Source: Anaspis maculata (lineage: Eukaryota > Arthropoda > Insecta > Coleoptera > Scraptiidae). From it: a stretch of 64,000 nucleotides of DNA. Location of the stretch: the NCBI GenBank assembly GCA_949128115.1, contig OX421968.1, positions 6,138,001 through 6,202,000 of the forward strand. Reading direction: 5' to 3'. The position numbers were made by a program, and so were the translations under genes. Shown one piece after another: positions 13,416 through 43,960 of the stretch. How positions within the stretch are numbered: position 1 is the stretch's first letter; each line of letters begins with the position of its first letter. The notes below the pieces were generated by a model, which was not told the DNA's origin, searched no databases, and was given only the letters and a program-made list of their open reading frames with translations.

Positions 13416-13475
13416 ATGGGGTACTTGTCAATAAACAGATTTGAATGAAAATTCTTTCAATCATCAATATTTTTT
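13416..13475 (+). mobile_element. Partial GGGGTACTTG MITE end
   Basis: ATGGGGTACTTGTCAATAAA, AGATTTGAATG and ATCATCAAT match the left end of the MITE at 17755-18156. Only about 60 bp is present, and it stops where the tandem array begins. Confidence 0.5.
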
Positions 13476-15290
13476 TGTTTGGAGGCGGAAGCTGGAAGCA
13501 GCCACTAGTCAACAGTAGCCTATTCTTTCCCATTTTTAGTCGGCTATCCATATAGCGAAAGAATTAGATCGTTATATCTTCGGGTTTATGTTTTTTATTC
13601 ACCTCTTACTTTGAGGGCAGCGTGTGGGGGCGGCAGCATTCGGAAAAGTAACTATTGCACAGTTGAAGTTGGGGGTTTCCAAATGTGTAAGAAAATATGA
13701 CAAATCAGTGGAAATTATGGAAGTTGCATTTTTGTTTGTTTGGGGGCGGGAGCTGGAGGCGGCGACTAATCAAAAGTGATCTCTCTTCCCATTTTCAGTC
13801 ATCTATACATATAGCGAAAGAATTAGATCGTTAATCTTCAGGTTTATGTTTAACATCTATCTCTTACTTTGGGGGCGGCGTGTGGGAGCGGCAGAGTTTG
13901 GCAAAGAAATTCTTGCACAGTTTGAGCTGGGAGTTCATCTATGTTTGAGGTAACATTAACATCCAAATCAGTGAAAATTGTTTGAAGTTGCACTTTTTTC
14001 TTTTGGGGGCGGAAGCTGGAGGCGGCACCATATCAAAAGTAGCCTATACTTTCCCATTTTCAGTCAGCTATCCATATAGCGGAAGAATTAGATCGTTATG
14101 TCTTTGGGTTTGTCTTTTTCATTCATCTCTTACTTTGAGGGCACCGTGTGGGGGCGGCAGCATTCGGGAAAGTAAATGTTGCACAGTTTGAGTTGCGAGT
14201 TTCCAAATGTGTAAGGAAATATGACAAATCAGTGAAAATTACGAAAGTTGCATTTTTTTGTTTGAGGGGCGGGAGCTGGAGGCGGCGGTTAATCCAAAGT
14301 GGCCTATCTTTTCCCATTTTCAGTAAGCTATCTATTTATATAGCGAAAGAATTAGATCGCTATGTCTTCAGGTTCATGTTTTACATTTATCTCTTGCTTT
14401 GGGGGCGGCGTGTGGGAGCGGCAGAGTTTGGCAAAGAAATTCTTGCACAGTTTGAGTTGACAGTTTCTGAATGTTTGAGGTAACATCAACATCTGAATCA
14501 GTCTAAATTGTTGAAAGTTGCACTTTTTTTTCTTTTGGGGGCGGAAGCTGGAGGCGGCGCCATATCACAAGTAGTCTATCCTTTCCAATTTTCAGTCAGC
14601 TATCTATACAGCAAAAGACTCACATCGTTATGTCTTCGGGTTCATGTTTTTCATTTATCTCTTACTTTGGGGGCGGCGTGTGGGAGCGGCAGCGTTCGGC
14701 TAAGCAAATGTTGCACAATTTGAGTTGGCAGTTTCTAAATGTTTGAGAGAACATCTCAATCAGTAAAATTGTGAAAGTTGCACTATTTGTCGTTTGGGGG
14801 CGGAATCTGGGGGCGGCGACTAACTGAAAGTAGCCTATCCTTTTCCATTTTTAGTCAGCTGTTCATATACCGAAAGAATTAGATCGCTATGTCTTCGGGT
14901 TTATGTTTTTCATTTTGAAGTAATTGGGGGCGGTTTTTAGCAATTTTTTCATATCGGCGGCGCATATTGAAGGCGGAATGTTTCTGGGCTTACGTTTATA
15001 AGTGACAACTATGCATTATTCATAAAATGAGAACACCAGAGCAGTAGGTCTGGGAGAAATTGCAATATCATGTTATTTCAAGTTTATAGGGGGCGGTTTT
15101 CTCTATGTTGGCGGTGCAATATAGACATTAAATATAGCCTAGCCTTCCTTTGGGAGTGGCAGCTATGTAACAGCGAAAAAATTAGAAAGCTATGGCGTCT
15201 AGTTTGGGAGGAGTTCGAGGAACGGACGGACGGACGGAAAAAGCGGTTGCAATAGCGATTTTCATCAAGATGGAAAATGCGCTAAAAATA
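13476..15290 (+). repeat. ~260-bp tandem array with dimeric order, (GGAC)n and terminal hairpin (element B)
   Basis: Six units begin with a GGGGGCGGAAGCTGGAGGCGGC-type motif near 13482, 13735, 13993, 14252, 14523 and 14788, so the period is 253-271 bp. Units alternate between two types. Units 1 and 3 share GCAGCATTCGG and AATATGACAAATCAGTG. Units 2 and 4 share GCAGAGTTTGGCAAAGAAATTC and GTTTGAGGTAACAT. That gives a ~520-bp higher-order period. After 14930 there are degenerate half-units, a (GGAC)n tract (15222-15237), a hairpin (15254-15283, AGCG.ATTTTC / GAAAAT.CGCT) and CTAA at 15282-15285. The end architecture matches element A. Confidence 0.7.
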
Positions 15291-22126: not shown

Positions 22127-23273
22127 CATACATACATACATTTATTATTCTTCTGTTGCAGTGGTAACACAAATAAGACACGTCAATTATAACTAGTATA
22201 TACAATATACAACAAGATATACACAAAAAATATCTACAGAATTACAGAAACACCTGTATCTGTTTTCCACAAATGTATCAAACACGAATAAACAATCTAA
22301 AAATGACTTTGTCGCGAACCGCCAAGGAACTCCTCAATCTCCGCCAGACTGTAAAAACAATAAGATGACAACAGCGTCTTCAACCTTGACTTGAACTCCC
22401 TAATACTCGTAACATGGCACAACTCAGGAGGTAGTCGACCGAACAGCCTGCACCCTGCGTAAAGAGGTGATTTTTCGTAAAACTTGTGTTTGTGAGCCAA
22501 AGGTCTTAACATTTTTCTCTGTCGTGTGCGATGATCGTGCACATCTCCATTCAAAGTGAATTTCGATTTATTTTCGAAAACATAGCATAACAGCTTCAGA
22601 ACATAAATCGACGTAACCGTTAAAATTTTATGCTTAGCAAAACGTCCTCTACACGTGTCTCCGAAAGGCAAACCGAACATCGTCCGCACAATGCGCTTCT
22701 GCGCCCTCAGAACCCTTTCGACCTCAGTCGACTGTCCCCAGACCACAATGCCGTAGGAGACGACGGACTGGCAAATTGCATAATAAGTCTGAAGGAGGAC
22801 GCCAACAGTAACAGACTTCCTGAGAGTCAGAAGAACGTAATTCGCAGATGCCAACCTCGAACAGACTCCATCCACGTGCCCGCAGAAGCTAAGGTTTCTG
22901 TCGAACACCACCCCCAGTAGCTTACACTTCGCCGATGCACCAAACTCCCCAACATCCACTGATGGCTGTCTATGAACGTTACAAAACTCAACACAAACAC
23001 TTTGTCCACATTTATAATCAAATTATTCAGCCTACACCATTCCCGAAACTGCTCTACCACAGCATCCAGACGCGATCTTACACGCTCAGAGCTGGAGTCC
23101 CTGATCAAAACTGTGACGTCATCAGCATAAACAAATAACAACCCATCCGTCACGTGTTTTGGCAAATCATTCACGAACAAAATAAAAATCAATGGGCCCA
23201 GAACACTGCCTTGAGGAGTGCCCAAGTCCATATTAAATAATTCCGATTTAGCATCGGCAATCTGTATATTGTA
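22127..23273 (-). pseudogene. LINE reverse transcriptase, 3' part, cut by the giant palindrome
   Basis: Minus-strand non-LTR retrotransposon. The frame ending at 22827 (from 23231, open to 23273) carries the RT blocks GTPQGSVLGPLIFILFVNDL and YADDV. A frameshift near 22960 leads into the second frame (22959-22297), which has the post-RT region: KCKLLGVVFD, SVVSYGIVVWGQS and RAQKRIVRTMFGL. That order is typical of CR1/Jockey-type LINEs. The 3' UTR runs to a short ATGT-type tail at 22127-22145. Upstream codons are interrupted at 23273 by the palindromic element and resume at 33928 in the same frame. It is inactive because of the frameshift and the insertion. Confidence 0.85.
23268..23273. repeat. 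6-bp target-site duplication, left
   Basis: ATTGTA immediately outside the left end of the giant palindrome. It is repeated in direct orientation at 33928-33933. Confidence 0.85.
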
Positions 23274-23310
23274 AGTAGGTACGGGGTCAGTTGAGCCAGA
23301 CGTTTCTAGG

Positions 23311-23560
23311 GACTTTTATCTGGTGACTTTTGGTTGGCAACACTGAATCTAGTGACTTTTTTGACAGGTCGTTAAGCATTGGATCTGCATTACCGGCATT
23401 TGACAGGTGGCGCGGGAAATTTGAAAAGTTTTTAGTTTATCTGGTGACTTTTGGTTATTATCACTGAATCTAGTGACTTTTTTGACTGATCGTCAAGCAT
23501 TTATTCTGTATTACCGGCATTTGACATGTGGGGGATTTTAACGTGCGGGAAATTTGAAAA
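23311..23560. repeat. ~120-bp sub-terminal duplication in the palindrome arm
   Basis: TTATCTGGTGACTTTTGGTT, CTGAATCTAGTGACTTTTTT, ATTACCGGCATTTGACA and GGGAAATTTGAAAAGT each occur twice in order, about 120 bp apart. Mirrored at 33641-33890. Repeated sub-terminal motifs are common transposase-binding arrangements; function here is inference. Confidence 0.65.
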
Positions 23561-23849
23561 GTACGTGGAATTTGGATTTGACAGGTTGGGTCACAGATTG
23601 TGTTTGGCAGGAGACATTTGTTAGCTTGAAAGCGCGGGATGTTTGAATTCCCTATACCTACTGAAGCACTCCTCATTGTATCTTAACCCTTGCAAACTCT
23701 CAAGTGGTTTGGTTTCAATAGTTATTTTTGGTATATAAACGCAAGCAAATAGAACCATTTTATTGACAGACCAATATACTGTGCTAGTTACATGGACAAT
23801 AATTACATACAGTTCAGGGTAAGACCTCAACATCATGATTTATTCGTAG

Positions 23850-24790
23850 TTTAATTCACATAACTGCTTACATAGACAATTATATTAAATTCAAAATAAA
23901 GCACAAACAGGTGATCATAAACAAATTTACAGTATTGATTATACATAAAAACATTGATTACTAAAATTACTTGAAATCGAAGTACGTTCGATAAAATTTC
24001 TTAGTTGCTTACATAGACAATTACGTCAAATTGAAATAAGGCACAAACAGGTGATCGTGAACGATTTTTCATAGCTGAGTATACAGGCATCAACTACCTA
24101 TAATCGAAAAACATCTAATACATGTTCTTAGTTGCTTACATAGACAATTACGTGAAACTTAAAATAAGGTACAAACAGGTGAGCATGAATGACTTTTCAT
24201 AGCTAAGTATACAGACATTATTCACTTGAAATCGAAGTACATTTGATACAATTTCCCAGCTGATTACCGCATACCATTACATAAAATTTGAAATAAGGCA
24301 CAAACAGGTGATAATAAACAAATTTACATAGTTGATTATACATAGAAGATATGCACACGAACATAAAATCGAAGTACATTTGACTATTTCTTAGTTGATT
24401 ACATAATATACAATTACATGAAATTCAAAATAGGGCACGAAGAGGTGATCATAAACAAATTTACAGTGTTGAATAATACAAACTTGAATTACTCAAAATC
24501 GAAGTAGGTACATTCAATACAATTTCTTAGTTACTTACATAGGCAATTACGCGAAATTCAAATAAGGCCAAAACAGGTGTTCATGAGCGATTTTTATAGC
24601 TGATTACACAAACATTGAATACTTTAAAATAGGAGTAGGTACTTTTAATACAATTTCTTAGTTGATTATACCATATAAAATTATTTGAAATTTGAATTGA
24701 GGCACAAACAAATTATAATAAACGAATTTATAGGGTTGATCACACAAATATCAATGACCTGTAATCGAGGTACATTTTTAATACAATTTC
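23850..24790. repeat. ~130-bp tandem array in the left arm (about 7 units)
   Basis: Each unit contains AAATAAGGCACAAACAGGTGA (often altered by a base or two), a CAATTACNTGAAATT block and AATCGAAGTACATT, with TTTCTTAGTTGNTTACATA. Markers lie near 23895, 24038, 24170, 24293, 24430, 24560 and 24695. The same array lies reversed at 32411-33351. It is non-coding. Confidence 0.7.
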
Positions 24791-25235
24791 TCAGTACAAA
24801 CATCATTCACCCAAAGTCGAAGTACACTTAACACGACAACTTGATGGTCGGCAGTTCTGATGTGCCGGTCGCGAGGCAAATTGTTGGAATCATCGTCATC
24901 ATTATTGGACACAATTAACTCCTTCATGGAGCCAAAATTGAGTAGCTTGGAATTCTTATAGCTCAGTTTTATTATTTTCACTTTGCAAACGACATCACTT
25001 CTATTCTCGGGTGCTGGGAAGGCGAAGGGCCCACTGTTGGCTCTTAGAGAGAATCGTTGATAGTGTGAATTCAGTAACTGGATCAGGTTGACAGTATAAT
25101 TCTAGTTATTGTAGTTGTGATGAGAACATTCCAGGTGAGTACTACAAAAAAAAAAATCAAAAATTGTATGTTATGTCTAACAGGATATTATAATACAAGT
25201 TTCATAAGACATAGTATTGTTGGGGGGTACGGAAA

Positions 25236-25280
25236 ATGAACGAGTGAATATGCCTCCACGACCGTGAGGCTTATTGTTTG
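25236..25280 (+). repeat. Dispersed double-hairpin repeat, copy 5 (in palindrome arm)
   Basis: CGAGTGAATATGCCTCC, stem CTC.ACG..CGT.GAG, then GCTTATTG. Mirrored at 31921-31965. Only the first hairpin is kept. Confidence 0.5.
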
Positions 25281-26944
25281 TAGGTATATGCATTTCAACT
25301 ACCTGAGAAGTCGCACCCAAAATAACGGCTCTTGCCAACAGGGAATTGGTTGAAGGCCTTTTTTCTTATAATTTATAAGGTTATGACGGTATTACGGGAG
25401 CATAATTATTGAAAATAAAACATGCTAATTGTCGCAAGGCCCTTAAGGTCGTGAGTGGCGTGACAATATCCACCATGTAAACCGTGGTAATAAGTTTGAA
25501 TTTGAACAATCTATACTGTTTATCCGCGTAACCAGTCTTTTTTCCATCAACTGTAGTCATTCCACAGAGTTTTAACAAGAGATTGATTTTTTTTTTCAAT
25601 AAAGTTTGACCATCGAGTCTGTGGGTGATATATTTTTTTTTTTTTGCATAAGCATGAGACATTACATTGAAAAAGATCGATGGAATTGGCTTAGCTTTGC
25701 GTGGGGTAGGTATAATATACAGCGAGCCGCGGCTTTGCAGTCGTTTCCAAAAATCCGGAACTATCGACCAGGGGCCTGTATCGAAATAGAATTTTTTTTG
25801 TCAAAAGAGAGTTAAATTTTTTTCTAAATATAACCCGTACATATAGTAATGTGTTTCCATAAAAATATGTACTTAAATAAATGAATTGTCCGCATAAACA
25901 TAGTGAAAATTAAACTTACACGAAAAACACAAACACGGCACAGCACCAACCCATGAGGCTGCTAGATAACGAATGCAAACGCACCACCACCACCTGTCGA
26001 CTGGGTGGTTGTTCGTAACTTCTTACCTGAAAAGCCCTGAGCTATTAATTTTTTTTACCTGAAAGATCGTGTCTGAACAGGAATTTTTAGTATCATATGC
26101 ACATATTCACGGAGCCAGCAGATAATCAATAATTATTATATAAATAGAAACTTTATTTAAAAATTACTTTGTGCTTATCACATAATGCTCCGACTTGAAA
26201 AATATCAGCGCTGAATTTTGTCAGTCCAGTACGGCAATGTAAAAATAAAAAAATATAAAAGATATAAGTATTTAGGAGCTCAATGTGTTGAAAAGATGTT
26301 TTAATAAAAACTATTAACATATGGACAAATTTACATAAAAATACCTAATGTTTTTCAATGCTCAAAGGTATTAGCCTAAAATGTTAGCGATTATCGATTG
26401 CATTGAGTACACCTGCCTACTGAAATTTTTCAAGTACCTGAGGGTCTAATATAAACGACTCTAGCATGCCAGCATTTTATAAGAATTTTCTACTTGACCG
26501 ACCTTGAATTTTCAATAAATACCCTTTGATTACCAGGTTGAGAAAGAACGAATGAATACGAGAGGTAGCCAGTAGTGTAGGTAGCGCGACCGAAGAAATT
26601 AACAAGAGAGTTTTGCAGCATTGCCCACCCGCTGACGAGTGCTCTTCAAGCTACAAATATCTCCGGATCAAATATGTACCAAGCCATATGCGTAGTATCA
26701 GAATGGTGCATCTTAATACTTAACTCGGCCCTTTCAGGATGTACCTATGGGAGAAGTTTGTGCAAATAAAAATACGCACTAGTTATTGGTTACAGCTTTG
26801 TTCATTTCAGATTTTTAAACAGTTCCATACTCCTATCCTTACCTTAGATATGAAAGATTTTATTGTATCTATCTATGTACTAACAAGACTCTAAGAATTT
26901 TCATTCACATGTTCGAAAATATTTGCAGTCATTTCTTACAATAA

Positions 26945-27529
26945 TTAAAGGGTTTGACTGTCGAAGAGACAAATATGGTTTCGCCAGCTAATGATGTTGG
27001 ATATAAGAATCCAAGCTCGCATAGAAGGTCGAACGCAACCCGTTGACGCCTCTAATATTATTATCCCACTTTCTCGTCGTCTTCCTTCCAATAAAAGTAC
27101 CTCGCCAACATTAGCACTTTTGGAAGTTTTTAAATACACTAACTTATCTGTAACTGCGCCTGGGTCGGTAGGACAGCCATATTCTTCATTTTTTTCAATT
27201 CACTGAAATTCTTTGCCACTTCTTTTGAGGCTGGAACCTAACTTGGAGAGATTTCTATAGGTCCTTATTGGTGCAGATTGACCTTTTGTCGAGAATCCAA
27301 ATCGGTAGCAAGAAGCATCATGGACAAAGTCGTCATCACTCATTTCATCATACATTGTCTCACCGCTGTCCGTCGTTTTCAGATTTTGAGAGAAGGTTAC
27401 TTCTAATTGATAAGATCTCGAGTGTATTGCAGATGTAGATGAACTGGTTCCGCACCTACGACGTTGGAATTTTTTTTGTGTCCATACTTGTTTTGTTGAA
27501 GATATGTTAGCTCGGGACATATTCTTCAA
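26945..27529 (-). pseudogene. Candidate 194-codon reading frame with one in-frame TGA (left arm)
   Basis: The frame starts at 27529 (MKNMSRANISSTKQ) and runs 109 codons to a TGA at 27200-27202. It then continues in the same frame without another stop to 26945 (including VYLKTSKSANVGEVLLLEG). The product is not recognised. The first part is rich in basic residues and serines and has an acidic patch (YDEMSDDDF). The mirror copy (29672-30256) carries the same TGA, so the stop predates, or was spread between, the two arms. It could be a decayed captured gene, a gene with recoded TGA, or chance. Confidence 0.35.
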
Positions 27530-27916
27530 GAAAACTGAGCTATTTTCAATATTTTGTAGGATATATGCGATGGCAAGGCCTTCTTCTCTTTAGTTTCTCG
27601 CACCAAGCGTGCTAACATAGACTTTAAAATACCGAAAACTCGGGCACTTGTTCTAACCTAGGTCTCTCGGAGGACTTTGGTTATAGCGCTTTGAATTTTT
27701 TCGGAAATATTTCTCTTGCTTTCTGCAGCTCTACCTTCTATCGTTATCAAAAGCTCGATCATTTCTGGATATTTTGCTCCCGCTCATTCAAATCTACAGA
27801 TACTCTTCATTTCACGTTTTACTTATCTCAGCATGATGAATAATCTCACCATTATTTTGTCTCCATCGATTGTCCCCTTTCAGTGTCCACTTCAATGTCA
27901 CCTTTGTACTCTTCAA

Positions 27917-28047
27917 TTGTCCCTAACGTGTCCCTAACGTGTCCCTAACGTGTCTCTAACGTGTCCCTAACGTGTCCCTAACGTGTCCCTAACGTGTCTC
28001 TAACGTGTCCCCAACGTGTCCCTAACGTGTACTTTAACGTGTTCCCT
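27917..28047 (+). repeat. 11-bp minisatellite, left arm
   Basis: Tandem units of CCCTAACGTGT with variants TCTCTAACGTG and CCCCAACGTGT. The order of variants is identical in the mirrored copy at 29154-29284. Confidence 0.85.
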
Positions 28048-28268
28048 AACTTGAGTGAAGCGGATCGAACGTGCGGCGATAAAAACGCGCTTGACTAAAA
28101 ATGCGCTTGACTGAAGCCACTCTGGACCCGATCGAAACTCGAGCAGATTGAAAGCTGCGATCGAAACGCAGTCACTGCTAGAGACCAGCGTATACCGACA
28201 AGTCCTAGCGAACAGCCTATAACGTTAACTCCTAGTTGCCGGCCTATGCTGATAGCGACAGCACAAGT

Positions 28269-28459
28269 GATCAGGTTAGGAGTATAGAGACTTAGCGGTT
28301 GAAGCATGACGACTCGGCGGGCAGAGCATGACGACTTAAAAGGCCGACGTATGCAGACTTTGCCAGTGGACAGCGTATAGCGAGAAGTTCTAGTAGTCAT
28401 GCTCTGTCTGCCAAGTCGTCATGCTTTAACCGCTAAGTCTCTATACTCCTAACCTGATC
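28269..28459. repeat. 191-bp hairpin unit H, left
   Basis: Starts GATCAGGTTAGGAGTATAGA and ends with its complement. The stems (28269-28335 and 28394-28459) are ~66 bp and the loop is 58 bp (28336-28393). The second copy (28742-28932) sits at the mirror position but carries its loop in the same orientation, so the loop breaks the overall palindrome. Confidence 0.8.
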
Positions 28460-28741
28460 CTCCTCACCATTATTTTGTCTCCATCGATTGTCCCCTTTCA
28501 GTGTCCACTTCAATGTCACCTTTGTACTCTTCAATTGTCCCTAACGTGTCCCTAACGTGTCCCTAACGTGTCTCTAACGTGTCCCTAACGTGTCTCTAAC
28601 GTGTCCCTAACGTGTCTCTAACGTGTCCCTCACGTGTCCCCTATGTCACTTCTAATGTCCCATATGTTCCATGTGTCTCCTTCAACTGTCTGTTTGTCAA
28701 TTAAATGATTCAATTTGCTTTTGTTTATACCGTGTCACAAT
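28460..28741. repeat. Central spacer with extra minisatellite copy
   Basis: 28462-28640 repeats, in direct orientation, the arm segment from about 27846 onward (CCATTATTTTGTCTCCATCG, then the CCCTAACGTGT minisatellite). 28640-28741 is unique to the centre; part of it (TTTGTCAATTAAATGATTC) resembles, with changes, the arm sequence near 33430-33470. The palindrome is therefore not a simple read-through fold. Confidence 0.7.
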
Positions 28742-28932
28742 GATCAGGTCAGTAGTATAGAGACTTAGCGGTTGAAGCATGACGACTCGGCGGGCAGAGC
28801 ATGACGACTCAAAAGGCCGACGTATGCAGACTTTGCCAGTGGACAGCGTATAGCGAGAAGTTCTAGTAGTCATGCTCTGTCTGCCAAGTCGTCATGCTTT
28901 AACCGCTAAGTCTCTATACTCCTAACCTGATC
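28742..28932. repeat. 191-bp hairpin unit H', right
   Basis: Same unit as 28269-28459 with a few substitutions (for example TCAGTAGTATAG against TTAGGAGTATAG at its left stem). Its 58-bp loop is in the same orientation as in the left unit. Confidence 0.8.
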
Positions 28933-29153
28933 ACTTGTGCTGTCGCTATCAGCATAGGCCGGCAACTAGGAGTTAACGTTATAGGCTGTTCGCTAGGACT
29001 TGTCGGTATACGCTGGTCTCTAGCAGTGACTGCGTTTCGATCGCAGCTTTCAATCTGCTCGAGTTTCGATCGGGTCCAGAGTGGCTTCAGTCAAGCGCAT
29101 TTTTAGTCAAGCGCGTTTTTATCGCCGCACGTTCGATCCGCTTCACTCAAGTT

Positions 29154-29284
29154 AGGGAACACGTTAAAGTACACGTTAGGGACACGTTGGGGACACGTTA
29201 GAGACACGTTAGGGACACGTTAGGGACACGTTAGGGACACGTTAGAGACACGTTAGGGACACGTTAGGGACACGTTAGGGACAA
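29154..29284 (-). repeat. 11-bp minisatellite, right arm
   Basis: Mirror of the left-arm array, reading ACACGTTAGGG on the + strand, with the same variant order. Confidence 0.85.
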
Positions 29285-29671
29285 TTGAAGAGTACAAAGG
29301 TGACATTGAAGTGGACACTGAAAGGGGACAATCGATGGAGACAAAATAATGGTGAGATTATTCATCATGCTGAGATAAGTAAAACGTGAAATGAAGAGTA
29401 TCTGTATATTTGAATGAGCGGGAGCAAAATATCCAGAAATGATCGAGCTTTTGATAACGATAGAAGGTAGAGCTGCAGAAAGCAAGAGAAATATTTCCGA
29501 AAAAATTCAAAGCGCTATAACTAAAGTCCTTCGAGAGACCTAGGTTAGAACAAGTGCCCGAGTTTTCGGTATTTTAAAGTCTATGTTAGCACGCTTGGTG
29601 CGAGAAACTAAAGAGAAGAAGGCCTTGCCATCGCATATATCCTACAAAATATTGAAAATAGCTCAGTTTTC

Positions 29672-30256
29672 TTGAAGAATATGTCCCGAGCTAACATATC
29701 TTCAACAAAACAAGTATGGACACAAAAAAAATTCCAACGTCGTAGGTGCGGAACCAGTTCATCTACATCTGCAATACACTCGAGATCTTATCAATTAGAA
29801 GTAACCTTCTCTCAAAATCTGAAAACGACGGACAGCGGTGAGACAATGTATGATGAAATGAGTGATGACGACTTTGTCCATGATGCTTCTTGCTACCGAT
29901 TTGGATTCTCGACAAAAGGTCAATCTGCACCAATAAGGACCTATAGAAATCTCTCCAAGTTAGGTTCCAGCCTCAAAAGAAGTGGCAAAGAATTTCAGTG
30001 AATTGAAAAAAATGAAGAATATGGCTGTCCTACCGACCCAGGCGCAGTTACAGATAAGTTAGTGTATTTAAAAACTTCCAAAAGTGCTAATGTTGGCGAG
30101 GTACTTTTATTGGAAGGAAGACGACGAGAAAGTGGGATAATAATATTAGAGGCGTCAACGGGTTGCGTTCGACCTTCTATGCGAGCTTGGATTCTTATAT
30201 CCAACATCATTAGCTGGCGAAACCATATTTGTCTCTTCGACAGTCAAACTCTTTAA
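29672..30256 (+). pseudogene. Candidate 194-codon reading frame with one in-frame TGA (right arm)
   Basis: Mirror copy of 26945-27529. The first 109 codons end at a TGA (29999-30001), and the frame stays open for 84 further codons to 30256. An ATG at 30062 could start the second part on its own. The protein sequence is the same as in the left arm and is not recognised. A splice or recoding event could join the parts, but no clear GT..AG pair stands out. Confidence 0.35.
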
Positions 30257-33200
30257 TTATTGTAAGAAATGACTGCAAATATTTTCGAACATGTGAATGA
30301 AAATTCTTAGAGTCTTGTTAGTACATAGATAGATACAATAAAATCTTTCATATCTAAGGTAAGGATAGGAGTATGGAACTGTTTAAAAATCTGAAATGAA
30401 CAAAGCTGTAACCAATAACTAGTGCGTATTTTTATTTGCACAAACTTCTCCCATAGGTACATCCTGAAAGGGCCGAGTTAAGTATTAAGATGCACCATTC
30501 TGATACTACGCATATGGCTTGGTACATATTTGATCCGGAGATATTTGTAGCTTGAAGAGCACTCGTCAGCGGGTGGGCAATGCTGCAAAACTCTCTTGTT
30601 AATTTCTTCGGTCGCGCTACCTACACTACTGGCTACCTCTCGTATTCATTCGTTCTTTCTCAACCTGGTAATCAAAGGGTATTTATTGAAAATTCAAGGT
30701 CGGTCAAGTAGAAAATTCTTATAAAATGCTGGCATGCTAGAGTCGTTTATATTAGACCCTCAGGTACTTGAAAAATTTCAGTAGGCAGGTGTACTCAATG
30801 CAATCGATAATCGCTAACATTTTAGGCTAATACCTTTGAGCATTGAAAAACATTAGGTATTTTTATGTAAATTTGTCCATATGTTAATAGTTTTTATTAA
30901 AACATCTTTTCAACACATTGAGCTCCTAAATACTTATATCTTTTATATTTTTTTATTTTTACATTGCCGTACTGGACTGACAAAATTCAGCGCTGATATT
31001 TTTCAAGTCGGAGCATTATGTGATAAGCACAAAGTAATTTTTAAATAAAGTTTCTATTTATATAATAATTATTGATTATCTGCTGGCTCCGTGAATATGT
31101 GCATATGATACTAAAAATTCCTGTTCAGACACGATCTTTCAGGTAAAAAAAATTAATAGCTCAGGGCTTTTCAGGTAAGAAGTTACGAACAACCACCCAG
31201 TCGACAGGTGGTGGTGGTGCGTTTGCATTCGTTATCTAGCAGCCTCATGGGTTGGTGCTGTGCCGTGTTTGTGTTTTTCGTGTAAGTTTAATTTTCACTA
31301 TGTTTATGCGGACAATTCATTTATTTAAGTACATATTTTTATGGAAACACATTACTATATGTACGGGTTATATTTAGAAAAAAATTTAACTCTCTTTTGA
31401 CAAAAAAAATTCTATTTCGATACAGGCCCCTGGTCGATAGTTCCGGATTTTTGGAAACGACTGCAAAGCCGCGGCTCGCTGTATATTATACCTACCCCAC
31501 GCAAAGCTAAGCCAATTCCATCGATCTTTTTCAATGTAATGTCTCATGCTTATGCAAAAAAAAAAAAATATATCACCCACAGACTCGATGGTCAAACTTT
31601 ATTGAAAAAAAAAATCAATCTCTTGTTAAAACTCTGTGGAATGACTACAGTTGATGGAAAAAAGACTGGTTACGCGGATAAACAGTATAGATTGTTCAAA
31701 TTCAAACTTATTACCACGGTTTACATGGTGGATATTGTCACGCCACTCACGACCTTAAGGGCCTTGCGACAATTAGCATGTTTTATTTTCAATAATTATG
31801 CTCCCGTAATACCGTCATAACCTTATAAATTATAAGAAAAAAGGCCTTCAACCAATTCCCTGTTGGCAAGAGCCGTTATTTTGGGTGCGACTTCTCAGGT
31901 AGTTGAAATGCATATACCTACAAACAATAAGCCTCACGGTCGTGGAGGCATATTCACTCGTTCATTTTCCGTACCCCCCAACAATACTATGTCTTATGAA
32001 ACTTGTATTATAATATCCTGTTAGACATAACATACAATTTTTGATTTTTTTTTTTGTAGTACTCACCTGGAATGTTCTCATCACAACTACAATAACTAGA
32101 ATTATACTGTCAACCTGATCCAGTTACTGAATTCACACTATCAACGATTCTCTCTAAGAGCCAACAGTGGGCCCTTCGCCTTCCCAGCACCCGAGAATAG
32201 AAGTGATGTCGTTTGCAAAGTGAAAATAATAAAACTGAGCTATAAGAATTCCAAGCTACTCAATTTTGGCTCCATGAAGGAGTTAATTGTGTCCAATAAT
32301 GATGACGATGATTCCAACAATTTGCCTCGCGACCGGCACATCAGAACTGCCGACCATCAAGTTGTCGTGTTAAGTGTACTTCGACTTTGGGTGAATGATG
32401 TTTGTACTGAGAAATTGTATTAAAAATGTACCTCGATTACAGGTCATTGATATTTGTGTGATCAACCCTATAAATTCGTTTATTATAATTTGTTTGTGCC
32501 TCAATTCAAATTTCAAATAATTTTATATGGTATAATCAACTAAGAAATTGTATTAAAAGTACCTACTCCTATTTTAAAGTATTCAATGTTTGTGTAATCA
32601 GCTATAAAAATCGCTCATGAACACCTGTTTTGGCCTTATTTGAATTTCGCGTAATTGCCTATGTAAGTAACTAAGAAATTGTATTGAATGTACCTACTTC
32701 GATTTTGAGTAATTCAAGTTTGTATTATTCAACACTGTAAATTTGTTTATGATCACCTCTTCGTGCCCTATTTTGAATTTCATGTAATTGTATATTATGT
32801 AATCAACTAAGAAATAGTCAAATGTACTTCGATTTTATGTTCGTGTGCATATCTTCTATGTATAATCAACTATGTAAATTTGTTTATTATCACCTGTTTG
32901 TGCCTTATTTCAAATTTTATGTAATGGTATGCGGTAATCAGCTGGGAAATTGTATCAAATGTACTTCGATTTCAAGTGAATAATGTCTGTATACTTAGCT
33001 ATGAAAAGTCATTCATGCTCACCTGTTTGTACCTTATTTTAAGTTTCACGTAATTGTCTATGTAAGCAACTAAGAACATGTATTAGATGTTTTTCGATTA
33101 TAGGTAGTTGATGCCTGTATACTCAGCTATGAAAAATCGTTCACGATCACCTGTTTGTGCCTTATTTCAATTTGACGTAATTGTCTATGTAAGCAACTAA

Positions 33201-33927
33201 GAAATTTTATCGAACGTACTTCGATTTCAAGTAATTTTAGTAATCAATGTTTTTATGTATAATCAATACTGTAAATTTGTTTATGATCACCTGTTTGTGC
33301 TTTATTTTGAATTTAATATAATTGTCTATGTAAGCAGTTATGTGAATTAAACTACGAATAAATCATGATGTTGAGGTCTTACCCTGAACTGTATGTAATT
33401 ATTGTCCATGTAACTAGCACAGTATATTGGTCTGTCAATAAAATGGTTCTATTTGCTTGCGTTTATATACCAAAAATAACTATTGAAACCAAACCACTTG
33501 AGAGTTTGCAAGGGTTAAGATACAATGAGGAGTGCTTCAGTAGGTATAGGGAATTCAAACATCCCGCGCTTTCAAGCTAACAAATGTCTCCTGCCAAACA
33601 CAATCTGTGACCCAACCTGTCAAATCCAAATTCCACGTACTTTTCAAATTTCCCGCACGTTAAAATCCCCCACATGTCAAATGCCGGTAATACAGAATAA
33701 ATGCTTGACGATCAGTCAAAAAAGTCACTAGATTCAGTGATAATAACCAAAAGTCACCAGATAAACTAAAAACTTTTCAAATTTCCCGCGCCACCTGTCA
33801 AATGCCGGTAATGCAGATCCAATGCTTAACGACCTGTCAAAAAAGTCACTAGATTCAGTGTTGCCAACCAAAAGTCACCAGATAAAAGTCCCTAGAAACG
33901 TCTGGCTCAACTGACCCCGTACCTACT

Positions 33928-33933
33928 ATTGTA
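33928..33933. repeat. 6-bp target-site duplication, right
   Basis: ATTGTA directly after the right end of the palindrome; identical to 23268-23273. Confidence 0.85.
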
Positions 33934-34025
33934 CCATCCATATAAATGAACGTACAATCTTGCGGTTTCTCCGCAATACGGCTCAAATTTCAAGACTTCA
34001 ATAGGGAGCTCACAAGAAACAGCGG
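33928..34025 (-). pseudogene. LINE reverse transcriptase, displaced upstream fragment
   Basis: On the minus strand this ~98-bp segment stays open in the frame that continues at 23273 once one copy of the 6-bp duplication is discounted. Its peptide (AVSCELPIEVLKF, then ETARLYVHLYG) resembles the stretch between the RT F-D motif and the PQG motif of LINEs, the region after SKAFDxVxHE. The residue expected to be the first catalytic Asp reads as Ser, right beside the end of the next foldback (34026), so the boundary may have disturbed it. No further upstream RT is recognised beyond 35142. Confidence 0.55.
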
Positions 34026-36273: not shown

Positions 36274-36698
36274 TGTTACGATATTCGGGTTCGCCGATCT
36301 CGGAATTAAATGCGCTGATTTACTTGTAAACAAACTGCACTTTATTAGCTACTACCGACACAACTAAATAACGCACAGAATTATTAATCGCTTAGAAATT
36401 CACAATGTCGCTTAAGGTGTTGACGCCACGATCGCTCGATTCAAACTCTCTCGATGCCAGGTCAAGCTCCTCTCTTATAGTGGCATCGAAGGTTCTGGAT
36501 GCTTCCTGATTATGTTTACAGCACACGAGAATTTCTCTGGTATCTGCGTCGAGAATATACCAGTATTTTCTACGGCACCTCCGCCAGCAGTCTCGACGTG
36601 TCGTGACCTACCGCTGAAGTCTCTCGATGCTTCCCGAATGCAACGCGTAATGCTAGATTTCTCTAGAAAGAGCCGGGATGGTCGCGAGCTTCGTAACA
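36274..36698 (-). repeat. 3' LTR of the gypsy element
   Basis: Runs from TGTTACGATATTCGGG to GCTTCGTAACA on the + strand. The termini are short inverted repeats (TGTTACG / CGTAACA). Confidence 0.9.
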
Positions 36699-36713
36699 CT
36701 GCCCCCCTCTTAA
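36699..36713 (-). promoter_or_regulatory. Polypurine tract
   Basis: On the minus strand AAGAGGGGGGCAG directly precedes the 3' LTR, the expected place for the plus-strand primer of reverse transcription. Confidence 0.75.
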
Positions 36714-38518
36714 GCCTGTTCGTCCCAAATAGGCTGAACATTACTCCCCGCGTAACGTGCGAGACGATCGAGGTGAACAACTTTCATTTTGGTTCTCGGG
36801 GCTCGCTGGATCCGATAAACAACGTCGTTGATTCTCTTGACCACCGTGTAAGGTCCTTCCCAGGCGGGGTGTAACTTCGGTGACCTCCCCTTTCTCCGTT
36901 GAGGATTGTATAACCAGACAAGATCACCAGCTTGAAATTCTGCTGAATTCGCCTTCAGGTCGTAGCGTGTCTTCATCCGGTCGGTGGACAGTCGAATCCG
37001 GTCCCGCACTAATTCATGGACGTCGTGCATCCGCTGTCTTGAGTCGTCGACATACTCCGGAACAGCTTTGGGGTCGTCCTCTGGCGTGCCAAATTGCAAA
37101 TCGCAAGGGAGACGTATCTCCCGACCAAACATAACCCGGGCTGGTGATTCGCCCGTTGTGTCATGAATGGCCGCTCGATATGCCATCAAAAACAATGGCA
37201 AATGACGGTCCCAATCTCGCTGATGTTCGTCAACTACCTTTGACAAATGCTGCTCCATCGTCCTGTTGAATCGCTCCACCATTCCGTCGGACCGTGGATG
37301 AAGAGGCGTAGTCCTTGTTTTCTTGATCCCAAGCAAATCGCAGACACCCTGGAACACGTTGGATTCAAAGTTGCGTCCTTGATCCGAGTGCAACTCCAGT
37401 GGTACACCGAAACGACTGATCAGGTTATCCACCAGCACACCCGCCACTGTGGTAGCCTCTTGGTTTGGTAAGGCGTATGCTTCTGGCCACTTGCTGAAGT
37501 AGTCCATGGCAACCAGGATGTACTTGTTGTCACTCTCTGTTGTCGGGAACGGTCCGGCCACATCAATTGCGATGCGTTCAAAGGGCGCTCCAACATTGTA
37601 GCTCTTCAGTTCCGCTCGGGTACGAGTCCTTGGTCCCTTGCTGGCCGCACAAACTTCACATTTACGGCACCATGCTTCCACGTCGTTCCGGCAGTTCACC
37701 CAATAGAACCGCTCGCGCACCTTGGCCAACGTCTTGTTCACCCCAAAGTGTCCTCCGGTGACGCCGTCGTGCATCTCTTTTAGGACCTCCTCCACTCGTG
37801 TCTTGGGGAGCACCAATTGAACCATCTCCCTCTTTCCATCAGGGCTCTCCCACACTCGCTTCAGCAGACCGTTCTCTATTTTCAGAGATTTCCATTGGGC
37901 CCAGAGAGCTTTAAATTCGGGCCCTTCGTCAGAGATTTCAGCCCACTCTGGTCTGTCCTGACCATTCTCCTTGCGTTCAGCAAGTGCACCAATAGCCGGG
38001 TCTTCACGTTGCTCTTTCCTGAGTTCAGTTGTAGTCCAATTTCTCGGGGTCGCAACAACTATTGCTTTGACGCCAACGTTTCCATTCTGCTGGTCCACTC
38101 TTTTGCAATGCCTGCAATCCTCTTTGCACGGTCTTCGAGAAAGAGCATCTGCATTTCCGTGACTTTTTCCAGGACGAAGTTGACTTCCTCGATCAGCAGC
38201 TTCCGGTTCCAGCGTGAAACGGTCTGCTTGATCTCCTCGATCAGCAGCCCCCCGTTCAAGCATAAAACAGTCTGCTTGATCTCCTCGATCAGCAGCCCCC
38301 CGTTTCAGCATGAAACGGTCTGCTAAAGCGTATCGTCGCCTGCAGTCGCGTTGCAGATGCCCGTCCTTTCCACATTCAAAGCAACGTGGTCTTGCTCCTC
38401 TACGATAGCTTGCTCTCGGTTTGTGACCTTCTCGATCAGCAGTTCCCCGTTCCGCTGTGGAACGGTCTGCTGAACTCCACCATTGCCTGCAATCCCGGCG
38501 CATGTCCCGGTTTCCCAC
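36710..38518 (-). CDS. pol: Gypsy pol remnant: zinc knuckle fused to integrase
   Basis: A 602-codon frame whose first listed codon is GTG; it is open upstream and overlaps gag, so it is probably expressed by frameshifting or was once fused to gag. It has a CCHC knuckle (CFECGKDGHLQRDC, about residues 46-59), three tandem 16-residue units (ADRFMLERGAADRGDQ type, about 66-113), then SHGNADALSRRP, the typical end of gypsy RNase H. An integrase follows with an HHCC zinc finger (about 249-290), the D..D-35-E triad in IAIDVAGPFP (about 318), HSDQGRNFES (about 378) and MVERFNR (about 414), and the C-terminal WEGPYTVVKR. Protease and RT are absent. The integrase looks complete, so it may still be functional; that is inference. 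Confidence 0.9.
   Translation of the reverse strand: MGNRDMRRDCRQWWSSADRSTAERGTADREGHKPRASYRRGARPRCFECGKDGHLQRDCRRRYALADRFMLKRGAADRGDQADCFMLERGAADRGDQADRFTLEPEAADRGSQLRPGKSHGNADALSRRPCKEDCRHCKRVDQQNGNVGVKAIVVATPRNWTTTELRKEQREDPAIGALAERKENGQDRPEWAEISDEGPEFKALWAQWKSLKIENGLLKRVWESPDGKREMVQLVLPKTRVEEVLKEMHDGVTGGHFGVNKTLAKVRERFYWVNCRNDVEAWCRKCEVCAASKGPRTRTRAELKSYNVGAPFERIAIDVAGPFPTTESDNKYILVAMDYFSKWPEAYALPNQEATTVAGVLVDNLISRFGVPLELHSDQGRNFESNVFQGVCDLLGIKKTRTTPLHPRSDGMVERFNRTMEQHLSKVVDEHQRDWDRHLPLFLMAYRAAIHDTTGESPARVMFGREIRLPCDLQFGTPEDDPKAVPEYVDDSRQRMHDVHELVRDRIRLSTDRMKTRYDLKANSAEFQAGDLVWLYNPQRRKGRSPKLHPAWEGPYTVVKRINDVVYRIQRAPRTKMKVVHLDRLARYAGSNVQPIWDEQA
38178..38330 (-). repeat. 48-bp tandem repeat in pol
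   Basis: Three units of about 48 bp on the + strand begin GTCTGCTTGATCTCCTCGAT or a close variant and encode 16-residue repeats. They lie right beside the deletion join between the knuckle region and the RNase H tail. A related, more diverged unit lies upstream in the frame. Confidence 0.75.
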
Positions 38519-39614
38519 ATCCGAAGCAACGTGGCCTGCCCCCTGTCCTTGCTTCCTTATTTTCCAAAGCGATGAGAATCTTCTGGAACATCTCCTGGAC
38601 TGATGGGGACTGTAAATCGCTGGCCTTCCTGACTGTTGGATTCTCGGGTGCTTCCAATGTCGCTTCTCTGATTTTGAAGTGACGTGGAGAATCCTTGGCT
38701 GCTTCGATACGAATCGCGTGGATTAAGGCATCGGTGAGCGTCGCTGGGTTGCTGATTGTGACCATCTGGCGCAACTCGTTGTCCCTCAGTCCATTGATGA
38801 AGGTTTCTTTCGCAATATTAGCCAGCAGACTTGATGGATAGGCTGGATAAGCAAGGTTAACCAGCCTCTGAACGTCGGCCTCGAACTCCTGCAGGCTTTC
38901 TCCGCTCTTCTGTACCCTGGTTCTCAGACGGGTCTGGTGTATCTGCTGCACATGGTTGTCACCATAGCGAAGTTCCAGCACCTTCACCAGTGTTTTGAAA
39001 CACTTCTGTTCGTTCTCAGGTATTGTCTGAAGCAGCTCCAATGCCGGACCCCTGAGAGCAAGAACCAGCGCAGTAGCCTTTTCCTCGTCCGTCCATCCGT
39101 TGGCTTCGGCCGCTGCGTCGAACTGCCTTTTGTAAGTGGACCATGGGCTTTGTCCATCAAAATTCGGCAGCTTCACGCGATGGATCCCGCCCGTGTTCGT
39201 CGCTGAACTGGAAATGGCAGTTCTTCTAACACGTTGTTCCAGTTGCAAGATGTTCGCTTCCATCGCTGCCACCTTCTCATGGACAAATCCTTGGACCGTT
39301 TGTATTTGTTCGTGAACATTATCTAGAATGTCAGCTTTCAACTTCTCTTGTTTTTCCTCTAGATAATGCATTTGACCCTTCAGTACTTCTCTGAGCTCTG
39401 TTTTCTGCTCTTCGAGAACTTTCTTAAATTCTTCCTTCTCCTCAAGCCGTCTGTGCTCTTGGGCTTCCAGAACTTCCTTCCATTCTTCTTTCTCTTCGAG
39501 ACGTTCCTTTTTTTGTTCTTGCATCATCGCCATGATGCTCGCTAAAGCCTTTTCTGTTCCTTTTTGTGTCATGCTTCTGGTCGTCATCAAACGATTTCTC
39601 GAATGTTCCGACAA
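38436..39614 (-). CDS. gag: Gypsy Gag polyprotein
   Basis: 392 codons from an ATG at 39614. Residues about 30-130 are a long charged coiled coil (repeated KERLEEKEEWKEVLE-type heptads). Residues about 145-320 match the retrotransposon Gag capsid fold (LPNFDGQSPWSTYKRQF, LALRGPALELLQ, LELRYGD, ETFINGLRD). A zinc knuckle begins at about residue 358 (CFGCGKPGH) but loses its last cysteine. The + 1 frame continues with RRDC at the right spacing, so a one-base indel seems to have cut the knuckle and split gag from pol. No protease follows. Gag packages element RNA in the cytoplasm. Confidence 0.88.
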   Translation of the reverse strand: MSEHSRNRLMTTRSMTQKGTEKALASIMAMMQEQKKERLEEKEEWKEVLEAQEHRRLEEKEEFKKVLEEQKTELREVLKGQMHYLEEKQEKLKADILDNVHEQIQTVQGFVHEKVAAMEANILQLEQRVRRTAISSSATNTGGIHRVKLPNFDGQSPWSTYKRQFDAAAEANGWTDEEKATALVLALRGPALELLQTIPENEQKCFKTLVKVLELRYGDNHVQQIHQTRLRTRVQKSGESLQEFEADVQRLVNLAYPAYPSSLLANIAKETFINGLRDNELRQMVTISNPATLTDALIHAIRIEAAKDSPRHFKIREATLEAPENPTVRKASDLQSPSVQEMFQKILIALENKEARTGGRPRCFGCGKPGHAPGLQAMVEFSRPFHSGTGNC

Positions 39615-39674
39615 TCGGCGCAGTCACTAATCGATTACCTCGAAATCAGCAGTTGAAATTTCCAAATTCCGAAA

Positions 39675-39694
39675 TATCCTCTTCTGCCACCAGT
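39675..39694 (-). promoter_or_regulatory. Candidate primer-binding site
   Basis: On the minus strand the bases after the 5' LTR read ACTGGTGGCAGAAGAGG. The TGGTGGCAG core is in the usual place for a tRNA 3' end match; the tRNA is not identified. Confidence 0.5.
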
Positions 39695-40119
39695 TGTTAC
39701 GATATTCAGGTTCGCCTATCTCGGAATTAAATGCGCTGATTTACTTGTAAACAAACTGCACTTTATTAGCTACTACCGACACAACTAAATAACGCACAGA
39801 ATTATTAATCGCTTAGAAATTCACAATGTCGCTTAAGGTGTTGACGCCACGATCGCTCGATTCAAACTCTCTCGATGCCAGGTCAAGCTCCTCTCTTATA
39901 GTGGCATCGAAGGTTCTGGATGCTTCCTGATTATGTTTACAGCACACGAGGATTTCTCTGGTATCTGCGTCGAGAATATACGCGTATTTTCTACGGCACC
40001 TCCGCCAGCAGTCTCGACGTGTCGTGACCTACCGCTGAAGTCTCTCGATGCTTCCCGAATGCAACGCGTAATGCTAGATTTCTCTAGAAAGAGCCGGGAT
40101 GGTCGCGAGCTTTGTAACA
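39695..40119 (-). repeat. 5' LTR of the gypsy element
   Basis: Runs from TGTTACGATATTCAGG to GCTTTGTAACA on the + strand. About six substitutions separate it from the other LTR. Confidence 0.9.
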
Positions 40120-42139: not shown

Positions 42140-42700
42140 TACGAGGTAAACTAGCAACAAATGACGTCTCACCTCAAAATTGTGCCATTTTTTATTTACC
42201 TCGCTATAAACTTTCACAGCTTTCACTTGACAGCTCTTTGCCAATGATTTCAATTCTGTTAAAACTTGAACGTAAAACTGCACCGCAGATTTTAAGCTTT
42301 TAAATTTTTCAGTCATCTCCTTTATATTCACAGGTAGATTAAAAAAAAATACATCTTTGATTTTGCAACGATCATCTTGAGGTACTGATTTTTAAAATGT
42401 TGAAGCTAAAACATCGGACAAAAAAGACCTGAAGCTCAAAAATCCAAAAGTATCTTAAAACAGACATTAAAATCAAGGGGAGCCCAAATATGAGACGCCC
42501 TCGAATGTCATTTTGAGAGGAGAGTTTATTCAAAATCATCAATCTTATTTCGAACGAATCACTTTTTAAATACGCCTCGGCTTTTCATGCTAGTTCATGT
42601 CCAGAATTGTAGGTGAAGGGATCCAATAATTATAACGATATATTCAGGAAGAAGAAAGAGCGTGAAAATGCTCATAACCAACACTACTGGTACTGTGGTC
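42140..42700. other. No recognisable gene; possible LINE 5' UTR at the right end
   Basis: A short minus-strand frame (42122-42331) has no motif. The 5' limit of the LINE that follows cannot be fixed. Confidence 0.4.
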
Positions 42701-42710
42701 ACATGGTACT

Positions 42711-43345
42711 GTGTATGTCGAGCTGTGCGGATCGTTTAAAATGAGCTCTCTGTTTATAAACTATAAATGCTGTAAATTGAAACCGTTTGTGCACTATATC
42801 TGTACGAAGTGTCACGGCGTCTTTCACAAAGTGTGTGCCCAAAAAGTCAAAAGTGAGATACGAATCATCAACGAGAATCAAATAGTATGCCCCGATTGTT
42901 TGGAAGAATACGTAGCGCCAGAATGCCACGATAACACAGAAGTACTTGAGAAGATAATCAGCGAACTATATGAAGGCACTGAAATGAAGGAGAAACACAT
43001 AGAAAGGATAAAGGAGAGCTATGAAACATTCGTAAAAGAGGCAACAGCTCGAGAATATGAAATGGAAGATACCATGAGAATGCAGAAAAGAAGGATAGAA
43101 GAAGCTAAACAAACTATTGCCGAACTGAACAAAAAGTTCGAATCGCTATCTATTCCTGCTGAGTGTAAGAATGGTGGTGTAGGTATTCATGTTAGGAACG
43201 GTATTGATTGTGGTGGTATCGCTAAAATAAGTGATTTATCGATTGAAAAATCTTTTGAATGTGGAGCCATTAAAACTGTATGTAGGAAAACAAATAGGGG
43301 TGAAACTGTGATGGCCGTGTACAGAAGTCCGGGGGGGGGGGGGGT
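42711..43345 (+). pseudogene. LINE ORF1-like region joined to endonuclease start
   Basis: The frame begins with ATGs at 42711 and 42741. It encodes a PHD-like zinc-finger pattern (CCKLKPF, ICTKCHGVFHKVC, VCPDC) and a charged coiled coil of about 90 residues (from EVLEKIISELYEG to AELNKKFESL). It then passes abruptly into the middle of an AP-type endonuclease (GGVGIHVRNG, VYRSPGG). An intact LINE would have a full ORF1 end and endonuclease start here, so an internal deletion is likely. The frame is lost at a 13-base G run (43330-43343), where the endonuclease continues in another frame. Confidence 0.75.
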
Positions 43346-43960
43346 TATGATGTTTTTCTTGAGCGTCTTGACATGGCTTTGGGGTTTCTCACTGAGCGCG
43401 GAGATTGTGTCACTGTCGTTGGGGACTTCAATGTTGATTTTTTGTTGCCCTCAAGGAGGCTGAGTGCCCTCAAAGATATTTTGAATTCTTTCGATCTTGT
43501 TTTGGCTGTTGAAAAGCCCACAAGGATGGGAGCTTGTCTGGACAATGCTTTTTTGCCGAGAGATAGACTTGTGACATGTGAAGTTGATGGTAATGGTTTG
43601 TCCGACCATGCGTCGATTGTTTTAAATTTGTATGATGTGAGCCCAGTAGAAAACAAAACTGTAATTTTCAAAATCACAAGATCTGTTGTCAACATTGATA
43701 GGTTTAGGGAGCTTCTGGTGCATCAGGACTGGGGTGCTGTGCTGGCTTGTGCCGGTGCTGATGAGAAGTGTGAGGTATTTATGGAAGTTGTCGGCAACTT
43801 GTTTAATGCATCGTTTCCCGAGAAAACTTTTAGGGTGGGTAGTGTAGGGAACAAAAATGGAAACACAACTAAACAATGGATCACAGCGGGTATTAGGATT
43901 TCATCTAGGACACTTAAGTTTCTATACTTACAGACTCTAAATGGTGTGCTGAAAACCTAA
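43344..43960 (+). pseudogene. LINE AP-type endonuclease, C-terminal part
   Basis: Open from the G run through 43960. It carries the AP endonuclease hallmarks VVGDFNVDF (catalytic D and N) and GLSDHASI (catalytic DH). The linker to RT follows, and stop codons plus frame changes occur between 43961 and 44156 (AKKMYHNAF, SKTVWKIIGKI), breaking the link to RT. This is the target-nicking domain of CR1/Jockey-type LINEs; here it is split into pieces. Confidence 0.82.

What the first reader, a model, noticed from the sequence alone, without database searches (positions are those of the whole stretch)
23268..33933. A 10.65-kb, almost perfect palindrome that behaves as a transposon
Seen: 23274-33927 is an inverted duplication about the axis 28600.5 with ~5.06-kb arms, no net indel and very few mismatches. 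It is flanked by the direct 6-bp repeat ATTGTA and splits a LINE frame that resumes in phase on the other side. Known: 6-bp duplications with AG..CT ends occur in Polinton/Maverick elements, and 6-bp duplications also in IS3EU and Dada. Inference: a very large non-autonomous foldback element, perhaps a derivative of a Polinton-type or unknown superfamily, mobile despite having no gene I can recognise.
Basis: partly seen in the sequence, partly recalled or inferred. Interest (0 to 1): 0.92.

Follow-up and report, generated by a model that had tools for sequence, protein, structure and literature searches.

The report
Ten-kilobase palindromic transposon made by fold-back
A 10.65-kb stretch of what looks like an animal genome is an almost perfect mirror image that probably arose when a mobile DNA element folded back on itself, copied its own end, and jumped in; such foldback elements are known, but this one is unusually large and still shows the trace of the folding step.

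Summary
The palindrome is real. Arms 23274-28336 and 28865-33927 (5063 bp) match without an indel and with 9 mismatches, around a 528-bp asymmetric centre. ATTGTA abuts both ends exactly. The claim that a LINE frame resumes in phase is not confirmed: reverse-transcriptase similarity is detected only on the left flank.
New result: the innermost 68 bp of the arms are not a copy. They belong to a pre-existing hairpin unit (A-loop-A') that occurs twice in the centre. The five innermost mismatches are A-versus-A' differences carried by both units. Outside that stem, arm divergence drops from 5/68 to 4/4995 (Fisher P = 5e-8). This is the signature expected of fold-back priming: A' annealed to A across a loop and the whole terminus was copied back.
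Best reading: a non-autonomous foldback-type DNA transposon with two copies of one terminus, inserted with a 6-bp duplication. No coding similarity was found. A Polinton origin is possible but untested: 6-bp duplication and AGTAGG end fit, genes and usual repeat length do not. Drosophila Galileo has a 9-kb, nearly all-TIR copy, so the kind is known. The host genome could not be searched.

The parts
23268..23273 (+). left copy of the 6-bp direct repeat ATTGTA (putative target-site duplication)
23274..28268 (+). left arm proper (4995 bp), 4 mismatches to right arm; inferred to be the original (template) copy
23315..23531 (+). two subterminal repeats of 96 bp, 121 bp apart, 88% alike; possible transposase-binding region
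   Evidence: D10; role inferred
23888..24746 (+). seven diverged repeats spaced 128-140 bp (outer domain, as in Foldback-type TIRs)
   Evidence: (D3)
27845..28022 (+). m1: block with the 11-bp minisatellite TGTCCCTAACG, first copy
28269..28336 (+). A1: 68-bp stem, inferred annealing site (innermost part of left arm)
28337..28391 (+). L1: 55-nt loop of hairpin unit 1
28392..28459 (-). A1': partner stem of hairpin unit 1
   Evidence: (I24)
28463..28640 (+). m2: second, direct copy of m1 (98.3%), in the unique centre
   Evidence: (D1)
28641..28741 (+). U: spacer present once, between m2 and hairpin unit 2
28742..28864 (+). A2 (28742-28809) and loop L2 (28810-28864) of hairpin unit 2, direct repeat of unit 1
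28865..28932 (-). A2': stem that carries the A'-type variants (identical to A1'), inferred primer of the fold-back copy
28933..33927 (-). right arm proper (4995 bp), inferred fold-back copy of the left arm
33928..33933 (+). right copy of ATTGTA
22297..23267 (-). LINE reverse-transcriptase remnant on the left flank (target)

Best explanation
It is a non-autonomous, palindromic DNA transposon of the foldback type. Steps: (1) a parent element with the terminus AGTAGGTACGGGG... carried, about 4.6 to 5.7 kb inside that end, two direct copies of a block (minisatellite, spacer, 68-bp hairpin A-loop-A') [the blocks are shown by sequence; that they preceded the palindrome is inferred]. (2) In single-stranded DNA, the distal stem A2' annealed to A1, looping out about 530 nt, and its 3' end primed copying of the strand back to the terminus [inferred; supported by the mismatch step]. 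The rest of the parent, with any genes and its other end, was lost. The product has two copies of one terminus. (3) A transposase or integrase supplied in trans recognised the two identical ends and inserted the molecule here with a 6-bp duplication [inferred from the exact ATTGTA pair]. Whether step 2 came before or after insertion is open; before is preferred because the duplication lies exactly at both arm ends. The enzyme is unknown. Confidence by part: palindrome present in the sequence given, certain; present in the organism, about 0.95; insertion with a 6-bp duplication, about 0.8; fold-back priming at A/A', about 0.75.
For: Arms complementary to the base at both ends, with ATTGTA abutting. 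Four-way comparison of the stems: at the sites of the five innermost mismatches A1 = A2 and A1' = A2', and A2' is identical to A1' over all 68 bp, so these differences are older than the palindrome. Divergence 5/68 in the stem against 4/4995 beyond it, P = 5e-8. Units 1 and 2 are direct repeats (98.3% over 178 bp and 98.0% over 198 bp), while the right arm continues with the context of unit 1. This orders the events and makes the left arm the likely original. All four arm mismatches have G or C on the left and A on the right in arm orientation, which fits one arm being derived, though n = 4. In human inverted duplications the published fold-back signature is alike: a single-copy spacer with short inverted sequences at its boundary (PMC3907307, abstract). 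In yeast ssDNA, inverted repeats 30 kb apart still fold back and only more than 25% heterology suppresses it (PMC10164571, abstract).
Against: Only one copy is known: 24 genome searches did not complete, and the window holds no other at the blastn threshold used. A single 6-bp match can be chance (1/4096) or filler. About 28 extra nucleotides beside the right repeat (reading by eye), and a local inverted ATTGTAC/GTACAAT there, hint at a messy site. The four arm mismatches all lie in the inner 1318 bp (P = 0.005, limit chosen after seeing them), which a single copying event does not predict and gene conversion would. A2 differs from the other three stems at two further sites (28277, 28280 in A1 coordinates), so the centre has also changed on its own.
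Confidence: 0.6

Rival explanations
1. In-situ conversion: an element with ordinary ends sat here already; a break inside it was repaired by copying the left half onto the right as far as the right terminus. Mobility then belongs to the parent, not to the palindrome.
For: Same fold-back signature. For Galileo, template switching and imperfect gap repair during transposition are proposed sources of defective copies, and sequences pass from one TIR to the other (PMC4168063, passages).
Against: No boundary is visible near the right end: no mismatch in the outer 3677 bp. It needs the copy to end cleanly at the old right terminus.
Confidence: 0.2
2. Snap-back derivative of a Polinton-type or other protein-primed, virus-like element: a displaced strand folded back during replication and the element's integrase inserted the palindrome, as a defective satellite of the parent. 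(A special case of the best explanation, counted apart.)
For: 6-bp duplication; terminus AGTAGG close to the (AGT)2 end motif of vertebrate Mavericks (PMC8097293, passages). Snapback genomes are a major class of defective AAV particles (PMC8235507, passages).
Against: No hit to a Pfam family at its cut-off in 25 of 28 ORFs of at least 50 aa in the left arm and centre; no protein relatives of the 3 ORFs searched. 5 kb of arm without recognised genes is unlike the published Maverick TIRs (46-1447 bp). AGTAGG matches the motif at 5 of 6 bases only.
Confidence: 0.12
3. Ordinary long-TIR foldback transposon: arms grew by tandem repeats and stay identical by gene conversion or unequal exchange; no single fold-back event made them.
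For: The layout (flanking domain, tandem-repeat outer domain, inner domain, non-coding middle) is that of Tetris (PMC4079207, passages) and resembles Galileo copy 112 (9021 bp, TIRs 4246/4680 bp, about 140-bp repeats, no transposase segment). The four arm mismatches lie towards the centre.
Against: No indel in 5063 bp including repeats and nine homopolymer runs; the step in divergence falls at the edge of the hairpin stem.
Confidence: 0.18
4. Capture: a linear palindromic DNA was joined into a double-strand break in the LINE by end joining with templated filler; the ATTGTA pair is filler.
For: Extra nucleotides at the right junction and a local inverted ATTGTAC/GTACAAT. Short templated fold-back insertions occur at yeast breaks (PMC11724301, passages).
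Against: Both arms end at the same base of the repeat, and the same hexamer abuts both.
Confidence: 0.05
5. Assembly or library artefact (chimeric fold-back read).
For: Arms are 99.8% alike and the read coverage is unknown.
Against: Such artefacts would be expected to mirror the flanks too (general knowledge); here symmetry ends exactly at the hexamer and the two flanks differ. The 528-bp centre is asymmetric and has its own history.
Confidence: 0.05

Closest known systems
Galileo (P superfamily), Drosophila willistoni copy 112 (PMC4168063, passages)
   Same: 9-kb copy that is nearly all TIR (4246 and 4680 bp), no transposase segment, about 140-bp tandem repeats in the TIRs, flanked by identical target duplications
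   Different: Galileo TSD 7-8 bp, here 6; its TIRs differ in length and carry fragments of other transposons, here no indel between the arms; sequence relation not tested
Tetris, foldback element of Drosophila virilis (PMC4079207, passages)
   Same: three-domain TIR with internal tandem repeats, non-coding middle, no autonomous copy found
   Different: TIRs up to 1735 bp, TSD 8-10 bp; sequence relation not tested
Polinton/Maverick (PMC8097293, passages)
   Same: 6-bp TSD; end AGTAGG next to the published (AGT)2 motif
   Different: no polymerase, integrase or capsid gene found; TIR 5 kb against 46-1447 bp, and 10.65 kb against 12.7-24.6 kb, in intact vertebrate elements
IS3EU/GingerRoot (PMC10045372, passages)
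   Same: 6-bp TSD
   Different: published termini TA..TA (GingerRoot sometimes TG..CA); here AG..CT
Dada (PMC3706591, passages)
   Same: 6-7 bp TSD
   Different: Dada-U6 and Dada-U1 have no terminal inverted repeats, and Dada targets RNA genes; here 5-kb inverted repeats in a probable LINE
Fold-back inverted duplications of human chromosomes (PMC3907307, abstract)
   Same: single-copy spacer bounded by short inverted sequences between two inverted copies
   Different: there a chromosome rearrangement, here confined to a mobile element

Membership tests
Foldback-type elements (structural class) | very long terminal inverted repeats with internal tandem repeats | tested here: met
Foldback-type elements (structural class) | little or no coding middle | tested here: met
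   528-bp centre; the ORFs scanned there have no Pfam hit at its cut-off (28095-28418 -; 28697-28891 -)
Galileo / Tetris (placed in the P and, tentatively, Mutator superfamilies) | TSD of 7-8 bp (Galileo) or 8-10 bp (Tetris) | tested here: not met
   6 bp; published values
Polinton/Maverick | 6-bp TSD | tested here: met
   one site only
Polinton/Maverick | end motif (AG)3 or (AGT)2 (as published for vertebrates) | tested here: inconclusive
   AGTAGG, 5 of 6 to (AGT)2
Polinton/Maverick | protein-primed polymerase B, integrase, protease, ATPase, capsid genes | tested here: not met
   no Pfam hit at its cut-off in 25 of 28 ORFs; a gene-less derivative would not show them
Polinton/Maverick | shared terminal sequence with an autonomous element of the same genome | not tested
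   The genome search unanswered 24 times
IS3EU | TA..TA termini with 6-bp TSD | tested here: not met
   AG..CT; published termini
Dada | insertion in multicopy RNA genes; no terminal inverted repeats in the families described as such | tested here: not met
   (flank is RT)

The most novel reading that the evidence does not exclude
The element is a transposable snapback genome: a defective satellite of a self-replicating (protein-primed, Polinton-like) element, formed when a displaced strand folded back at the A/A' hairpin. Carrying two copies of one terminus, it is replicated and integrated by the parent's enzymes, as snapback particles of viruses are. If transcribed across the centre it would also give a 5-kb double-stranded RNA against its parent.
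Probability: 0.1. Interest if true: 0.75.

Novelty: new variant of a known kind. Interest (0 to 1): 0.45.

Why it matters
In the papers seen here the long, similar arms of foldback transposons are explained in general terms (template switching, gap repair, recombination). Here a 68-bp primer stem with its own older differences stands beside 4995 bp of copied arm, so a single fold-back event can be read from one sequence. The same test (does arm divergence step at an inner hairpin?) can be applied to other foldback elements. If copies exist, they would show whether such palindromes are mobile and which enzyme moves them.

Tried and rejected
Other copies inside the window: none at blastn word 7, E <= 0.01. 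Exact matches to the terminus and the minisatellite in IMG/VR and to the terminus in bacterial/archaeal genomes: 0 stretches each; this says little, since the window looks like an animal genome and only exact matches count. Element ORFs: Pfam on 25 of the 28 ORFs of at least 50 aa in the left arm and centre, best E 0.013, none at its cut-off (not scanned: 24679-24831 +, 26490-26645 -, 26556-26723 +; the mirrored ORFs of the right arm were not scanned again). Protein search with three ORFs: no relative. The three longest arm ORFs are longer than 1000 shuffles give (sum of top three P = 0.01; longest alone P = 0.067) and lie on one strand, so a decayed gene is possible but unnamed. The first idea that mismatches accumulate towards the centre was mostly rejected: of nine mismatches, five are stem differences; the other four still lie in the inner 1318 bp. 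The idea that the 1.1-kb inverted repeat at 51.4-54.5 kb is a relative: a GTTGAGCCAG-like motif near the end is shared, otherwise only weak short matches (best E 0.024). Paper searches listed no paper whose title or abstract start describes a transposon palindrome with a primer-stem signature; beyond the listings I saw passages of nine papers and abstracts of three. The end sequences of Polintons in insects were not found among the papers listed by two searches as far as I looked (passages of one insect survey).

Full report
What is there. The region 23274-33927 is an inverted duplication about 28600.5. The arms (23274-28336, 28865-33927) are 5063 bp, with no indel and 9 mismatches, and 528 bp lie between them. 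Symmetry ends to the base at 23274 and 33927; ATTGTA stands immediately outside both. The ends read AGTAGGTACGGGGTCAGTTGAGCCAGA. Chance cannot give this; the only statistical question is the hexamer (1/4096 for two fixed positions).

Anatomy of the arm. From the end inward: two 96-bp subterminal repeats 121 bp apart (23315-23531), seven diverged repeats spaced 128-140 bp (23888-24746), a stretch without recognised features, and a block with an 11-bp minisatellite (27845-28022). No ORF scanned has a Pfam match at its cut-off (25 of 28 ORFs of at least 50 aa in the left arm and centre), and three ORFs have no relatives among the searched proteins. The top three stop-to-stop ORFs (139, 129, 107 aa) exceed dinucleotide shuffles (P = 0.01; the longest alone P = 0.067). 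A decayed gene may be there.

The centre and the fold-back signature. A unit of 68-bp stem A, 55-nt loop and 68-bp stem A' occurs twice in direct orientation, at 28269-28459 and 28742-28932. Each is preceded by a copy of the minisatellite block (27845-28022 and 28463-28640), with spacers of 246 and 101 bp that do not align well. So the order is m1-X-A1-L1-A1'-m2-U-A2-L2-A2', and then the right arm begins with X', the reverse complement of X. The arm-to-arm comparison pairs A1 with A2'. Its five innermost mismatches are exactly the sites at which A differs from A' in both units (A1 = A2, A1' = A2' there); A2 has two further differences of its own. Beyond the stem, the arms differ at 4 of 4995 positions; inside it at 5 of 68 (Fisher P = 5e-8). 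A stem that keeps its own differences next to an almost error-free copy is what self-priming would leave: A2' anneals to A1 and its 3' end is extended along X, m1 and the rest to the terminus. The switch lies after 28900, where A and A' are identical as far as 28932. Because m2 repeats m1 in direct orientation, the left arm is the likely original. The four remaining mismatches are all G or C on the left and A on the right in arm orientation, too few to weigh much. Against a single clean event, all four lie in the inner 1318 bp (P = 0.005, limit set after the fact).

Published parallels. Human inverted duplications carry a single-copy spacer bounded by short inverted sequences (PMC3907307, abstract). 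In yeast, inverted repeats in long single strands fold back over 30 kb, and only heterology beyond 25% suppresses this (PMC10164571, abstract). With 1-kb spacers they mostly anneal between molecules and give inverted dimers (PMC6103520, abstract). So an inter-molecular anneal between two element copies could give the same product and is not excluded. Snapback genomes are a major class of defective AAV particles (PMC8235507, passages).

The insertion. The left flank is a LINE reverse transcriptase read on the minus strand (RVT_1 E 6.4e-15; tblastn with the RT at 44148-45539). The right flank shows no significant RT similarity (best E 4.2, 1.7). The exact hexamer at both arm ends remains the main evidence for transposition.

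Family. Published 6-bp duplicators were compared from passages: Maverick ends (AG)3 or (AGT)2, TIR 46-1447 bp, 12.7-24.6 kb, in vertebrates; IS3EU TA..TA; Dada-U6 and Dada-U1 without TIR, in RNA genes. AGTAGG is near (AGT)2 but not equal. By architecture it is a foldback element: Tetris has the same domains, and Galileo copy 112 in D. willistoni is 9021 bp with 4246/4680-bp TIRs, about 140-bp repeats and no transposase segment. Their duplications are 7-10 bp, so it is not filed with them. It works like a foldback transposon; its superfamily is unknown.

Limits. The own genome could not be searched in 24 attempts, so mobility, copy number, the autonomous partner and the host are untested. An animal host is inferred only from LINEs, an LTR retrotransposon and general look. 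Read support could not be examined.

Verdict. A real, large, very young-looking palindromic element with a readable fold-back origin: a new variant of a known kind. Interest is moderate, higher if a replicating parent is found.

Noticed in passing
51369-54470: A second inverted-repeat element, arms about 1.14 kb and 92.9% alike (51393-52525 / 53306-54437). Its end AGTCGTTGAGCCAG resembles GTCAGTTGAGCCAG of the palindrome's end; flanked perhaps by TAG on both sides (by eye).
   Followed up: partly
36274-40119: LTR retrotransposon with 425-bp repeats 98.6% identical at its ends; integrase domains (rve, H2C2) and a gag-like ORF with a weak PNMA match, on the minus strand.
   Followed up: partly
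42678-45539: Another LINE, plus strand, with reverse transcriptase (RVT_1 E 6.7e-32 for 44148-45539).
   Followed up: no
13470-14915: Tandem array of a 259-bp unit, 5.5 copies.
   Followed up: no
58809-59537: Two tRNA-Ala(GGC) genes in an inverted repeat of 148 bp, 94.6% alike.
   Followed up: no
33928-33975: Right junction carries ATTGTAC...GTACAAT, a short inverted repeat, and about 28 bases that seem foreign to the LINE (by eye); unexplained.
   Followed up: partly
24778-27589: The four longest arm ORFs (139, 129, 107, 84 aa) are all on the minus strand of the left arm, two of them (27200-27589, 26945-27199) in one frame separated by a single stop; possibly a decayed gene pointing outward.
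   Followed up: partly
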